DNA from: Antarcticibacterium sp. 1MA-6-2
Lineage (GTDB): Bacteria > Bacteroidota > Bacteroidia > Flavobacteriales > Flavobacteriaceae
DNA: 64,000 nucleotides
Reading direction: 5' to 3'
Assembly (NCBI RefSeq): GCF_021535135.1
Contig: NZ_CP091036.1
Span: forward strand, 3,782,001-3,846,000
Within the stretch, counting starts at the first letter, position 1; the number at the start of each line of letters is the position of its first letter. This document shows positions 7,762 to 56,706 of the stretch, in pieces. The translations under genes and the position numbers were made by a program. The notes below the pieces were generated by a model. It made no database searches. It saw only the letters and a program-made list of their open reading frames with translations, and had not been told where the DNA came from.

Positions 7762-7799
7762 AAATTGCCCCTGGCTGAAGCCAGGGGCAATTTTTTAGT
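7761..7799. terminator. Bidirectional terminator between hemN and the DUF438 gene
   Basis: A perfect 15-bp stem (7761-7775 / 7780-7794) around loop TGAA, with A and T runs on both sides. It serves the two convergent genes and overlaps the hemN stop codon by one base. Confidence 0.92.
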
Positions 7800-8763
7800 T
7801 CCAATCCAGGAGCCTTTTTTCTCCTTCAATAGTCTTAATGTCGGTTATATCCTGAGACATTTCAATTACGCCCTTATAATTCTTTTGAGCGTCGCGTACT
7901 GCAAAATACCTGATGTAGATAAGACGGCCTTTAAAATTGATCCAGAAGGAGGATTCACTTTTTGTTCCCTTTCGGAATTCTTCGAGAATCTTTAAAACCG
8001 TTCCCACACTTTTAGGGGGATGGCAGAATTTTACCTCCCGCCCGATAATTCCTGCACTTCTGGGAAATACCCGTTCTTCCCCGCGGTTATAAAAAATTAC
8101 CTTATCATTTTCGTCGACATAAGTAAGGTCAAGTGGCATTGTCTTCAGCAATAAATTTACCTGCTCCACAGTCATATAACCCTCATCATAGTGCGTGGAG
8201 TTCTCTGTTGAAAAAGACAGTTCTCTTTTGGTAAAATCCCGGGAAGGGTGGATGTACTCTTCTTTGGGAAATTGTACAGGTTCTTCAGGTAACATCCAGC
8301 CAATCTCTTCTTCGCCCTTTCGAACTTCCATCCAGTCTTTCTCAGACAGGATGTCTAAAGCATTTGGAAATAAAGTATGTTCCTCAGTGAGTAATAACTA
8401 GGTGAATGTTACTAATGAGGTAAGAACGATCCTGCTCCAGGTTATGAACCTCCCGTAACTCGATCTTCTTCCGCAGTAACCGAAAATGTTCTCTTATGGT
8501 GTCATGAAAGGACCACATATTCATTGAAGGTCCATTCCAACCTTTCTTTTCAAGAAATGGAAAAAGCTGATTCTCCTTCCGTTCAAACTAATGCGCTCTA
8601 TTTCCTGTAGCTGATTAAAGATGTTGTAAAATTTCTGATATTCAGAAACCGGATCTGCATTCTGAAATTCTTGCAACAAACCGATAATGATATCTTTTTC
8701 AAGAAAATAGATAGCAACGGGATGACCTTTTTCCAGTCCTGATATATCTATAGTTTCAGTCAT
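7795..8763 (-). CDS. DUF438 hemerythrin-like/PAS protein (reading frame broken by two sequence lesions)
   Basis: The frame is interrupted at 8587-8594 (ACTAATGC) and 8397-8403 (ACTAGGT). Reading ACCGGC and ACCGGT there restores one 321-aa protein. The N-terminal half is DUF438/HHE-like: KGHPVAIYFLEKD, ENQLFPFLEKKGWNGPSM, WSFHDTIREHF and EEHTLFPNALDILSEKDW supply conserved His/Glu residues for a possible di-iron site. The C-terminal half is a PAS domain (VDENDKVIFYNRGEERVFPR). Proteins of this type are thought to respond to oxygen, NO or redox state; the role here is inferred. An FNR-type box lies upstream, placing it in the low-oxygen regulon. Confidence 0.82.
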
Positions 8764-8783
8764 TTTTGTAAATTTTTCTTCAG

Positions 8784-8826
8784 CAAAGAAAAAGGTAAAA
8801 GAAAAGATGAGGTATGACTCAGGTCA
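8784..8826 (-). promoter_or_regulatory. FNR/Crp box and promoter of the DUF438 gene
   Basis: Palindrome TGACTCAGGTCA (8815-8826). On the minus strand a 23-nt spacer leads to TTTCTTTG (8784-8791), a -7 box. The start codon is at 8763. Confidence 0.75.
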
Positions 8827-8833
8827 TATCTCA

Positions 8834-8869
8834 TCTTCAGCAAGTTTAAAGTCTTCAGCAAGTTTAAAG
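8834..8869. repeat. Two perfect tandem copies of an 18-bp unit
   Basis: TCTTCAGCAAGTTTAAAG occurs at 8834-8851 and 8852-8869 without a gap. It lies between the stop codon of the upstream 600-aa gene and the FNR box. On the minus strand it would encode a repeated F-K-L-A-E-D in frame after that stop codon, so it may be a read-through tail or a recent slippage duplication. Confidence 0.8.
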
Positions 8870-53500: not shown

Positions 53501-53635
53501 GGAGATGTAAATGATGAAACAAGTGTCGTGGCCAGAGAAAAGGAAAATGACAGAATGTACCACACTCTTGAATACCTTGGTACAAAACCAAATGTGATGT
53601 ACCAAACGAAAGTTAGAAATACATCAGAAGCTTAG
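50502..53635 (+). CDS. actB: Alternative complex III iron-sulfur subunit ActB (two sequence lesions)
   Basis: Frames break at 52137-52143 (GCTATGT) and 52615-52621 (GCTTAGT). Reading GCCGGT at both gives 1043 aa. A Tat motif is present (TTRRDFLKYVGFSTAAA). The first two thirds resemble a molybdopterin oxidoreductase, which in ActB has lost its cofactor. The final third is ferredoxin-like: CTGCGACVIACHIENN, CQHCNHAPCETVCPVAATMHG, RCVGTRYCANNCPY and CSFCIQ, ligands for three [4Fe-4S] and one [3Fe-4S] cluster. It forms the periplasmic part of quinol:electron-acceptor oxidoreductase. Confidence 0.93.
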
Positions 53636-53667
53636 TTAATTAAATAAAGAATCAATTATAAAAGGAT

Positions 53668-55460
53668 ATGTCTCATTACGAAGCACCTATACGAAAGCCT
53701 CTAGTTACTCGCGATAAGTCCTATCACGATGTAACCCTCGATGTGGTTGCGCTTAGTTGAAGGAAAGGCTAATAAAGCCTGGTGGATTGTTTTTTCCATC
53801 GCTCTTATAGCATTTCTTTGGGGTTTAGGTTGTATTATATATACTGTTTCAACAGGTATTGGAGTTTGGGGATTGAACAGGACCGTAGGTTGGGCCTGGG
53901 ATATTACTAACTTCGTTTGGTGGGTAGGTATCGGTCACGCGGGAACACTTATTTCTGCAGTACTGCTTTTATTCCGTCAAAAGTGGAGAATGGCCATTAA
54001 CCGCTCTGCAGAGGCGATGACAATTTTCTCTGTAATGCAGGCAGGTCTTTTCCCAATTATTCACATGGGTCGCCCATGGCTTGCATATTGGGTACTTCCT
54101 ATTCCAAACCAGTTTGGTTCCCTGTGGGTGAACTTTAACTCTCCATTACTTTGGGACGTATTTGCAATTTCCACATATCTTTCAGTTTCCCTTGTATTCT
54201 GGTGGACAGGATTACTTCCAGATTTTGCAATGATTCGTGACAGGGCTGTAAAGCCTTTTCAAAAAAGGATCTATGGCATTTTAAGTTTTGGATGGAGTGG
54301 GAGAGCAAAGGATTGGCAGCGATTTGAAGAGGTTTCTCTTGTTCTTGCCGGATTAGCAACACCCCTTGTACTTTCGGTACATACCATTGTATCCTTTGAC
54401 TTTGCAACCTCGGTTATTCCTGGTTGGCACACCACTATCTTTCCTCCTTACTTCGTTGCCGGGGCAGTTTTCTCCGGGTTTGCGATGGTTAACACTCTGT
54501 TGATCATTATGAGGAAGGTTTCTAATCTGGAAGATTATATTACAATACAGCACATCGAATTGATGAACATCGTAATTATGATTACGGGTTCTATTGTAGG
54601 TGTGGCCTATATAACCGAATTGTTCGTAGCCTGGTATTCCGGGGTAGAATATGAGCAGTATGCTTTCCTTAACAGGGCGACAGGTCCTTACTGGTGGGCT
54701 TACTGGGCAATGATGACGTGTAACGTTTTCTCTCCACAGTTCATGTGGTTTAAGAAGCTGCGTACGAGCATCATGTTCTCCTTCTTCATCTCTATAGTGG
54801 TAAATATTGGGATGTGGTTTGAACGATTTGTAATTATTGTGACATCACTACACAGAGATTACTTGCCATCATCCTGGACCATGTTCTCGCCTACGTTTGT
54901 AGATGTTGGAATATTCATTGGAACCATAGGATTCTTCTTTGTACTCTTCCTTTTATATGCACGTACTTTCCCTGTAATTGCACAGGCAGAGGTTAAGACT
55001 ATCCTAAAATCTTCCGGAGCGAAATACAAGAGGTTAAGAGCAGAACATGGAGATCACGTAGATCATTATGATCCAATTGTACGGGAACCTAGTTTCTAAT
55101 GCTGAAGATAATAAGTGGGTTGATCGCGATGATCCTGCCGATTCACATCATGAAGCTACAGTTAATGCTGATGGTTTGATCAAACTTGATATTTACAGAG
55201 ACAGAATAGACGAAATGCTTCACCGCATAGGGGTTTATGATCCTGCAACTCAAAAAGCTGATGATCTTCAAAAAATAAAAGTAATTGGTCCTTTGCTTGA
55301 ACAAAGGCTCCACCAGTTAGGTATCTATACTTTTGAACAAATGAGTCATTTAACTGAAGAAGATGTAGAACTGCTTGATCTTATAATTGAAGATTTTACT
55401 TTAAAAGGCAGACATGCAGAGTGGACTACTCAGGCAAACCAACTTAAAAACAAGAACTAA
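53668..55460 (+). CDS. actC: ActC (NrfD-like quinol-binding membrane subunit) with C-terminal helix-hairpin-helix extension; two frame lesions
   Basis: Frames break at 53751-53757 (GCTTAGT) and 55087-55093 (ACCTAGT). Reading GCCGGT and ACCGGT gives 596 aa from ATG 53668 (MSHYEAPIRKPLVT). The missense string ACTCGC at 53707-53712 may be a third lesion, since LVTGDK is expected and LVTRDK is read. The core is NrfD-like with ten helices: WWVGIGHAGTLISAVLL, HMGRPWLAYW, LVLSVHTIVSFDFA. The tail of about 125 residues ends in an HhH-like segment (IKVIGPLLEQRLHQLGIYT, EEDVELLDLIIEDF). The stop overlaps the actD start by one base. Confidence 0.88.
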
Positions 55461-55989
55461 TGGCATCTAAAGTTATACACGCTATTTATACAGATGACGA
55501 CTTGCTTTTACAGGCTGTAAAACAAGTGCGTGAGGCACGGTACCACATTGGAGAAATATATACTCCATTTCCTGTACACGGGTTGGACAAAGCTATGGGA
55601 CTTGCTCCTACAAGATTGGCTATTGCTTCTTTTATCTACGGTGTTATTGGATTTTCGGTGGCAGTAACAATGATGAACTTTATGATGATTGAAGACTGGC
55701 CTATGGATATAGGAGGTAAACCGAGTTTTTCATTTATTCAGAATATGCTTAAGCATTCGTACCTATTATGTTTGAGCTAACGGTGTTTTTTGCAGCTCAC
55801 TTAATGGTTATAACCTTTTTCTTAAGAAGTAAACTATGGCCCTTTAAAACTGCTGAAAATCCTGATGTAAGAACAACAGATGATCACTTTTTAATGGAAG
55901 TTGACGTGGCAGGTCACAACACTAAAGATCTCACAGATTTCCTTTATCAAACAGGAGCTTCTGAAATTAAATTAATAGATAACAAATAA
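55460..55989 (+). CDS. actD: ActD (DUF3341) membrane subunit of alternative complex III (one sequence lesion)
   Basis: The frame breaks at 55747-55754 (GCTTAAGC). Reading GCCGGC gives 175 aa with SFIQNMPAFVPIMFELTVFF. DUF3341 proteins have two membrane helices (APTRLAIASFIYGVIGFSVA and IMFELTVFFAAHLMVITFFL) and cytosolic ends; HFLMEVDVAGHNTKDLTDFL is the conserved C-terminal part. It is a structural subunit of alternative complex III. It overlaps actC and is followed 5 nt later by actE. Confidence 0.9.
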
Positions 55990-55994
55990 ACCCG

Positions 55995-56706
55995 ATGAAA
56001 AGTTTATTTAATAAGTCCTTAATACTCATACTGGCATTGGCCGCTGTTTCCTGTGCAGATGACAACAGACCCAACTACCAGTATTTTCCAGATATGTACG
56101 AACTTAGTGCCGTACGAGCCTTATGGAGATTACCAAATTTTTCCAAATGGGCAGGAGGCTTTGGTTCCGGCTGCAGGAAGTGTTCCAAGAGGTTGGAAAC
56201 CTTATGAATATGAAAATACTGCAGAGGGTTATCAACTTGCCAAAACTGAATTAAAAAACCCATTGCCCTATACCGAGGATAATCTTGCAGCAGGCAGGCA
56301 GTTGTATACCATCTACTGTGCAGTATGTCATGGTGACCAGGGAGATGGGCAGGGGATTCTAGTGCAACGTGAAAAGATCCTTGGTATTCCAAGATATGAT
56401 GATGCAGGTAGGGATATAACCGAAGGTAGTGTTTACCATGTAATGTACTATGGCCTTAATGCAATGGGTTCTTATGCATCACAAACTTCTATTGATGAGA
56501 GATGGTTAATAGATCATTATGTGATGACACTAAAGAACGACCTGCTTGGTGGGGAAGAAAGAGCTTTTGATCAGGAATCTCAGGATAGTATTCCGCAAGG
56601 TCCTACAGAAAATCTTATTCCGGCTGTAAATGCTGAAGAAGATCAGGTGTCTGAACAGCAGGAAACTACAGGAGCATACGAAGAAGCTCAGGAAAATGAA
56701 AACTAA
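55995..56706 (+). CDS. actE: ActE monohaem cytochrome c of alternative complex III (one sequence lesion)
   Basis: The frame breaks at 56102-56108 (ACTTAGT). Reading ACCGGT gives 236 aa with PDMYEPVPYEPYGDYQIFPN. The lipoprotein signal (LILILALAAVSCADD) anchors it. One haem site is visible (YCAVCHGDQGDG) and an acidic, Q/E-rich tail follows the domain. ActE is the small cytochrome c subunit that receives electrons from ActA/ActB and passes them to the oxidase. Order and spacing match act operons of Bacteroidota. Confidence 0.9.

What the first reader, a model, noticed from the sequence alone, without database searches (positions are those of the whole stretch)
7795..56108. Hidden base-modification footprint: RCCGGY is missing and replaced by CTAG/CTTAG-like strings that break about 17 genes
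Seen: across the window about 20 indels break genes whose protein sequence is continuous across the break. At each, conserved protein sequence predicts ACCGGT, ACCGGC, GCCGGT or GCCGGC, all matching RCCGGY. Examples: trxA (12531, restores KPVLVDFF), ccoO (21153, RTGPDL), nirK (23700, VTGPGGG), ccoI (30294, VTGE), nusA (44883, APVFLEK), ccoG (18660, CPTGIDI). Observed strings are ACCTAGT, GCTTAGT, GCTTAGGT, ACTAAGT, ACTTAGT, GCTTAAGC and similar. I read about a hundred CCGG sites in the window and found none intact as RCCGGY, while YCCGG and CCGGR sites are normal. Inference: cytosine modification at RCCGGY corrupts the sequencing signal in an unpolished long-read consensus. That points to a Cfr10I/BsrFI-type methyltransferase or other modification in this organism.
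Basis: partly seen in the sequence, partly recalled or inferred. Interest (0 to 1): 0.95.

Follow-up and report, generated by a model that had tools for sequence, protein, structure and literature searches.

The report
Modified RCCGGY sites miscalled in assembly
In this bacterial genome assembly one six-letter DNA word (RCCGGY) is almost completely missing and CTAG-like strings that break genes stand at places where relatives often carry it, likely because the cell chemically marks that word and the predicted long-read sequencer misread it, so the broken genes would be intact in the living cell.

Summary
The window has 154 CCGG sites and no RCCGGY, where about 48 are expected. The whole 4.38 Mb contig keeps 62 RCCGGY; two same-genus genomes have 2538 and 4326. 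Among 392 genomes of the phylum only this one shows the loss. Of 30 R-(CTTAG/CCTAG/CTCAG-type)-Y strings in coding DNA that relatives cover, 18 sit on a frameshift, against 4 of 79 with other flanks. Relatives carry RCCGGY at those breaks 19 times more often than elsewhere. The only PF00145 cytosine methyltransferase found lies about 99 kb beyond the window, between a Vsr gene and a restriction enzyme gene. Its presumed recognition region is 74-87% identical to that of methyltransferases near Cfr10I/Bse634I-like enzymes (RCCGGY) but 0-23% to 10 of 11 other C5-methyltransferases. Best reading: cytosine methylation at RCCGGY caused a systematic long-read consensus error. The named strings cover about 57% of the missing sites; the rest may be other miscalls or real avoidance. 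No reads were available; platform and modified base are inferred.

The parts
11759..11765 (+). GCTTAGT at a +1 frameshift
   Evidence: 2 of 2 comparisons: relative carries RCCGGY here
12531..12537 (+).
   Evidence: 1 of 2
15623..15629 (+). ACCTAGT at a +1 frameshift, one relative ORF only
   Evidence: 0 of 1
18660..18667 (+). GCTTAGGT at a +2 frameshift in ccoG
   Evidence: 0 of 10; the ccoG piece covers profile 1-222 of 435
18724..18730 (+). GCTTAGT at a +1 frameshift in ccoG
   Evidence: 3 of 10
19964..19971 (+). GCTTAGGT at a +2 frameshift
   Evidence: 0 of 10
21153..21159 (+).
   Evidence: 2 of 9
21979..21985 (+). ACTAAGT at a +1 frameshift in the same relative ORFs
   Evidence: 3 of 9
23700..23706 (+). 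ACTCAGT at a +1 frameshift in nirK
   Evidence: 1 of 4; 116 of 120 listed homologues are 463-495 aa, the nearest 91% identical, 484 aa
27038..27045 (+). GCTTAGGT at a +2 frameshift, one relative ORF only
   Evidence: 0 of 1
30284..30290 (+).
   Evidence: (1 of 9)
44883..44889 (+). ACCTAGT at a +1 frameshift in nusA
   Evidence: 0 of 2; the NusA piece covers profile 2-200 of 340
50164..50170 (+). GCTTAGT at a +1 frameshift
   Evidence: 2 of 3
52615..52621 (+). GCTTAGT at a +1 frameshift
   Evidence: 0 of 2
53751..53757 (+). GCTTAGT at a +1 frameshift (DsrP-like gene)
   Evidence: (1 of 2)
55087..55093 (+). ACCTAGT at a +1 frameshift (same relative ORF), one relative only
   Evidence: 0 of 1
55747..55754 (+). 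GCTTAAGC at a +2 frameshift, one relative only
   Evidence: 0 of 1
56102..56108 (+). ACTTAGT at a +1 frameshift, one relative only
   Evidence: 0 of 1

Best explanation
RCCGGY is nearly absent from the assembled contig because its cytosines are likely methylated in the living cell and the predicted nanopore reads of the marked word were miscalled in the same way often enough to enter the consensus. Shown: the assembly-wide loss, its uniqueness among the genomes searched, the CTAG-type strings at frameshifts, and relatives' RCCGGY at half of those spots. Also shown: one PF00145 cytosine methyltransferase gene, in a cassette Vsr - methyltransferase - restriction enzyme, about 99 kb beyond the window. 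Inferred: this enzyme methylates RCCGGY (probably 5-methylcytosine on the first C of each strand, as reported for VchM). Inferred: the cassette is an NmeDI-like restriction-modification system that protects the host genome while the nuclease cuts unmarked DNA. Inferred: the data are nanopore reads without short-read polishing, in which the marked word is called with one or two extra bases and without its central CG. The genes would then be intact in the cell. Part of the shortfall may be real avoidance of the site.
For: Loss: window 0 of 154 CCGG; 17 against 586 expected in 856 kb; whole contig 42 ACCGGT + 1 GCCGGC + 19 ACCGGC/GCCGGT = 62, against 2538 (G001) and 4326 (G011), while TCCGGC/GCCGGA stands at 2051. 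RCCGGY has the lowest observed/expected ratio among the degenerate 4- and 6-bp palindromes with expectation above 300 (0.075; 1.03 and 1.07 in two relatives). Site level: 132 aligned RCCGGY of relatives, 0 kept, against 38 of 320 for the other three CCGG classes. Frameshifts: 18 of 30 RY-flanked strings against 4 of 79 with other flanks (Fisher 2e-9). Strings in 856 kb: RY-flanked 663 against 336 scaled from relatives; YR 701 against 668; RR+YY 1201 against 1068 (sums). Strand test: ACCTAGT+ACTCAGT 64 against 22 reverse complements on the contig + strand, same direction in all three thirds; relatives 16 to 19. Enzyme: the only PF00145 match, no PF01555, no dndC. Partners: a Cfr10I/Bse634I-family enzyme beside the relative on a Moraxella plasmid and similar sequences in 9 of 80 loci. 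Presumed recognition region (261-330): 74-87% identical to nine of these, 0-23% to 10 of 11 other C5-methyltransferases of relatives. 24 of 24 genomes examined with a related methyltransferase keep ACCGGC, so possession of the enzyme does not itself erase the word.
Against: The six string families give an excess of about 327 for about 569 missing sites, so roughly 43% is not traced; a stricter control on 456 kb gave a much smaller excess. The families were chosen from the window's own breaks, and the window is part of the 856 kb. Twelve of 31 frameshift clusters are not at such strings, three of them supported by two or more relatives' ORFs. Frameshift-type indels also occur at the other CCGG classes in the DNA alignments (29 of 320, against 21 of 132 at RCCGGY). 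Relatives show RCCGGY at only 9 of 18 break sites. The strand test was chosen after seeing the counts; six other pairs from self-complementary sites do not show it, and ACTTAGT/ACTAAGT (30 to 42) leans the other way. No reads, platform or modification data were available, and the one search for a same-species copy found none (nearest nirK 91%). Vibrio cholerae keeps about 2100 RCCGGY sites that are methylated (PMC4654547, passages, bisulfite data); I do not know how its nanopore assemblies behave.
Confidence: 0.87

Rival explanations
1. Real avoidance alone: the host lost its own RCCGGY sites through selection against self-cutting, and the frameshifts are unrelated pseudogenes.
For: A restriction enzyme frame of the same cassette is intact. 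Most genomes with a DmtD orthologue under-represent rCCGGy (PMC4390886, passages). One methyltransferase-bearing genome has a low ACCGGC to reversed-word ratio (177 to 1340, G451), another 983 to 6520 (G459). The strings explain only about 57% of the shortfall.
Against: Avoidance does not place +1/+2 insertions at 18 strings, including ccoG and nusA. 24 of 24 methyltransferase-bearing genomes examined keep ACCGGC. The few intact sites favour A/T on both sides (14 of 17, four of them copies of one repeat, against 240 of 609 in relatives), which fits signal context better than selection.
Confidence: 0.05
2. Mixed case, a variant of the best explanation and not exclusive of it: real avoidance lowered the number of RCCGGY sites and nearly all the remaining sites were miscalled.
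For: Shortfall accounting; low ACCGGC ratios in some methyltransferase-bearing genomes (G451, G459).
Against: In-frame or substitution-type miscalls would give the same accounting and were not counted.
Confidence: 0.4
3. A modification other than cytosine methylation by this enzyme (phosphorothioate, N4-methylcytosine, other) marks RCCGGY and disturbs the reads.
For: The loss is severe (17 of 586 expected sites remain), and published modification errors in Listeria were mismatches, not homopolymer indels (PMC10687267, section 6).
Against: No PF01555 and no dndC match in the genome. The one PF00145 enzyme belongs to an RCCGGY-linked clade and stands near Vsr, known as a repair enzyme for deaminated 5-methylcytosine.
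Confidence: 0.06
4. A natural mutational process (for example deamination and Vsr repair) rewrote RCCGGY in the genome itself.
For: A Vsr gene lies in the cassette.
Against: Deamination gives C-to-T changes, not +1/+2 insertions. Genes generally held to be essential, such as nusA, would be broken. Two strings prefer the contig's written strand in all thirds and occur so in genes of both strands.
Confidence: 0.02

Closest known systems
Modification-mediated nanopore consensus errors (Modpolish study, PMC10687267: outline, sections 6 and 10; PMC12392509: abstract and passages)
   Same: Systematic consensus errors at a methyltransferase motif in some strains only; in the Listeria ST87 strains the motif GCWGC is the target of a known methyltransferase.
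   Different: There mostly mismatches; here the traced errors are +1 or +2 insertions that break frames, the motif is RCCGGY, and no reads are in hand.
NmeDI restriction-modification system of Neisseria meningitidis (PMC7973814, PMC4081073, passages)
   Same: A Vsr, a C5-methyltransferase and a restriction enzyme together; target RCCGGY in most reports (RCCGGB in one). NmeDI cuts outside its site, and the enzyme here has a predicted C-terminal domain that aligns with N.BspD6I and FokI.
   Different: No NmeDI sequence was compared; gene order not checked; the host is unrelated.
Orphan RCCGGY methyltransferases DmtD (cyanobacteria, PMC4390886, passages) and VchM (PMC6555945, PMC4654547, passages)
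   Same: C5-cytosine methyltransferases for RCCGGY; cyanobacterial relatives are 55-59% identical to the enzyme here.
   Different: VchM is called an orphan, without a partner nuclease; whether the cyanobacterial loci are DmtD itself was not checked by name, and no VchM sequence was compared.
Cfr10I/Bse634I restriction systems (RCCGGY)
   Same: Methyltransferases near such enzymes share the presumed recognition region with this one.
   Different: The restriction enzyme here has no sequence match to them.

Membership tests
Modification-mediated long-read consensus error | Errors concentrated at one methyltransferase motif across the assembly | tested here: met
   about 57% of the shortfall traced to strings
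Modification-mediated long-read consensus error | Disappears in short reads or in amplified DNA | not testable with these tools
   no reads held
Modification-mediated long-read consensus error | Assembly made from nanopore reads without short-read polishing | not testable with these tools
C5-cytosine DNA methyltransferase (PF00145, TIGR00675) | Profile match over the curated cut-off, open frame | tested here: met
   (394 aa, E 5.9e-48 and 2.8e-46)
RCCGGY-specific C5-methyltransferase clade | Recognition region shared with enzymes of RCCGGY specificity | tested here: inconclusive
   74-87% identity over residues 261-330 to nine methyltransferases near Cfr10I-like enzymes; 0-23% to 10 of 11 other C5-methyltransferases, 54% to the eleventh. 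Met as a comparison, but the boundary of the region is my assumption and the partners' specificity is inferred from their neighbour genes
RCCGGY-specific C5-methyltransferase clade | Measured methylation of RCCGGY | not testable with these tools
   needs methyl-sequencing
NmeDI-type restriction-modification system | Vsr + C5-methyltransferase + restriction enzyme together | tested here: met
   against PMC7973814 passages; among 80 relatives' loci a Vsr match was seen in 6
NmeDI-type restriction-modification system | Sequence homology to M.NmeDI and R.NmeDI | not tested
   no NmeDI sequence was among the fetched loci; one related protein is named 'modification methylase NmeDIP' by its source (P0052)
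NmeDI-type restriction-modification system | Separate cleavage domain that cuts outside the site | tested here: inconclusive
Cfr10I/Bse634I restriction enzyme family | Sequence match of the restriction enzyme | tested here: not met
   no Pfam family at E <= 0.001, no PDB sequence at E <= 1
Dnd phosphorothioate modification | DndC homologue in the genome | tested here: not met
   0 matches at E <= 0.001

The most novel reading that the evidence does not exclude
The assembly is a hidden methylome: a missing-word scan plus the grammar of the replacement strings names the modified motif of an organism and its enzyme without any signal data, and the mark here is a hypermodified cytosine rather than plain 5-methylcytosine, which is why nearly every site is called wrongly and often with extra bases.
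Probability: 0.07. Interest if true: 0.8.

Novelty: new variant of a known kind. Interest (0 to 1): 0.45.

Why it matters
A genome that stands for its species loses about 97% of one motif and shows many apparent frameshifts, including in nusA, nirK and cbb3-oxidase genes, so pseudogene calls, motif statistics and protein sets from it would be wrong at those places. Conversely, a missing-word scan of unpolished assemblies could name active methyltransferase motifs from sequence alone. It is an artefact, not new biology, unless the mark proves unusual.

Tried and rejected
Second depleted motif: the palindrome and plain 5- and 6-mer screens showed none near RCCGGY (next lowest palindrome CTAG, 0.36, as low in relatives). 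Blind flank-enrichment of cores was dominated by composition and was replaced by the matched comparison. An earlier version on 456 kb that took the larger of two expectations showed small excesses (22 for RC-CTA-GY, none for RC-TTA-GY), so the accounting depends on the control chosen. A uniform + strand preference, suggested by the window alone (15 to 3 for three strings), vanished genome-wide for GCTTAGT (49 to 49). Phosphorothioation and an N4/N6 methyltransferase of PF01555 were looked for and not found; other methyltransferase families were not searched. A same-species intact copy was sought with one nirK piece; the nearest is 91% identical and 484 aa long, so no direct short-read test was possible. 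Structure: Foldseek gave no match at E <= 0.001; the second aligner's rows cover mainly residues 163-358 and say nothing about the N-terminal part. Literature: nanopore with RCCGGY and methyl (3 papers), Vibrio cholerae with nanopore and RCCGGY (2 papers), and broader searches, all seen as listings: no title or abstract start among them reports RCCGGY as an assembly-error motif. One search (NmeDI) listed only unrelated papers.

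
Full report
What was checked first. The window holds 154 CCGG sites: 45 RCCGGR, 56 YCCGGY, 53 YCCGGR and no RCCGGY. If the two flanks were independent, about 48 RCCGGY would be expected. 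The loss is not local. In 856 kb of the 4,383,004-base contig (window plus 40 sampled stretches) there are 17 RCCGGY against 586 expected. Over the whole contig there are 42 ACCGGT, 1 GCCGGC and 19 ACCGGC/GCCGGT, 62 in all, while the sister word TCCGGC/GCCGGA occurs 2051 times. Two same-genus genomes carry 2538 (G001) and 4326 (G011) RCCGGY by the same searches. Of the 20 genomes only this one is depleted (ACCGGC to TCCGGC 0.009; the other 19 range from about 0.6 to 1.6). Of 392 genomes of the phylum it alone, by my reading of the table, has an ACCGGC to reversed-word ratio below 0.1. A screen of degenerate palindromes puts RCCGGY lowest (0.075; 1.03 and 1.07 in two relatives).

What stands in its place. 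Ten same-genus genomes were searched with 19.9 kb of the window and stretches of nine of them were fetched. DNA alignments give 132 RCCGGY sites of relatives with an aligned window place: none is kept, against 38 of 320 for the other three CCGG classes. Twenty-one of the 132 show an indel that is not a multiple of three (29 of 320 in the other classes); 15 of the 21 are +1, many with window strings such as GCTTAGT, ACCTAGT and ACTAAGT. A frameshift-aware alignment of 191 ORF products of relatives to the window gave 31 frameshift clusters in 42.8 kb. Nineteen clusters sit at 18 strings of the form R-(CTTAG, CCTAG, CTCAG, CTTAGG, CTTAAG and reverse complements)-Y. In the covered DNA 18 of 30 such strings are at a frameshift; with RR, YY or YR flanks it is 4 of 79 (p about 2e-9). 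Relatives have RCCGGY within six bases of the break in 16 of 79 comparisons (9 of 18 sites), against 194 of 18213 background positions and 1 of 16 at frameshifts away from the strings. For nirK 116 of the 120 listed proteins are 463-495 aa long, the nearest at 91% identity: intact copies exist in relatives.

Accounting. In 856 kb the RY-flanked strings number 663 against 336 scaled from relatives, while YR-flanked ones are 701 against 668 and RR+YY 1201 against 1068 (sums over the six families). The excess of about 327 covers some 57% of the roughly 569 missing sites. The families were taken from the window's breaks, and the window is part of the 856 kb. The remainder may be substitution-type or rarer miscalls, or real avoidance; a stricter control on less data showed a smaller excess. 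I hold the mixed case possible (0.4); it is a variant of the main reading, not a rival to it.

Artefact or mutation. Three points favour a consensus artefact. Genes generally held to be essential, such as nusA, are broken. The 17 remaining intact sites have A/T on both sides in 14 cases, against 240 of 609 in relatives (four of the 17 are copies in one repeat), as a signal-context effect would give. And ACCGGT is its own reverse complement, yet ACCTAGT and ACTCAGT outnumber their reverse complements 64 to 22 on the written strand of the contig, in the same direction in each third of the contig and in genes of both strands; relatives show 16 to 19. A process in the cell would not be expected to follow the strand that the file writes. 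This test was chosen after looking, and six other pairs from self-complementary sites do not show it, so I give it modest weight.

Does the enzyme itself erase the word? No: all 24 genomes that I examined, reached through 24 of the 80 methyltransferase loci, keep ACCGGC, from 177 to 6402 sites. The loss therefore goes with how this genome was read, not with possession of the enzyme alone, though two of the 24 have low ratios (0.13 and 0.15).

Known or new. Systematic nanopore errors at modified motifs are published (PMC10687267: outline, sections 6 and 10; PMC12392509: abstract and passages). In the Listeria case the errors were mismatches. Here the errors traced are insertions and one motif is nearly wiped out. 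My searches of the library (listings only) showed no report of RCCGGY as such a motif. I therefore rate it a new variant of a known kind, of moderate interest.

Noticed in passing
G000:C1:3940001-3952000 (L002), outside the window: The restriction-modification cassette lies near an integrase-family gene and a partial recombinase, so it may sit on a mobile island.
   Followed up: partly
L193 1079, 1519, 3280, 3500 (G000:C1:2400001 onward): Four identical intact ACCGGC sites in copies of one repeat; the other 13 intact sites of the sample have distinct surroundings, mostly ACCGGT between A/T bases.
   Followed up: partly
window 39274: A +1 frameshift at a run of six T, supported by two relatives' ORFs and not at an RCCGGY-type string: perhaps an ordinary homopolymer error.
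   Followed up: no
window 42819: A frameshift with one base fewer, supported by two relatives' ORFs; one relative has GCCGGT at an aligned place nearby, so it may be another type of miscall.
   Followed up: no
window 9984: ACCTAGT at the overlap of two ORFs (8872-9996 and 9986-10675, minus strand) that no fetched relative covers: possibly a further break.
   Followed up: no
G451 (genome of L085, Reichenbachiella faecimaris) and G459 (genome of L095): Methyltransferase-bearing genomes with low ACCGGC to reversed-word ratios (177 to 1340; 983 to 6520), which may be real avoidance of the site.
   Followed up: no
L023 (G013:C171:11069-12130): A same-genus genome carries a methyltransferase 39% identical overall and 54% in the presumed recognition region; its specificity is unknown.
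   Followed up: no
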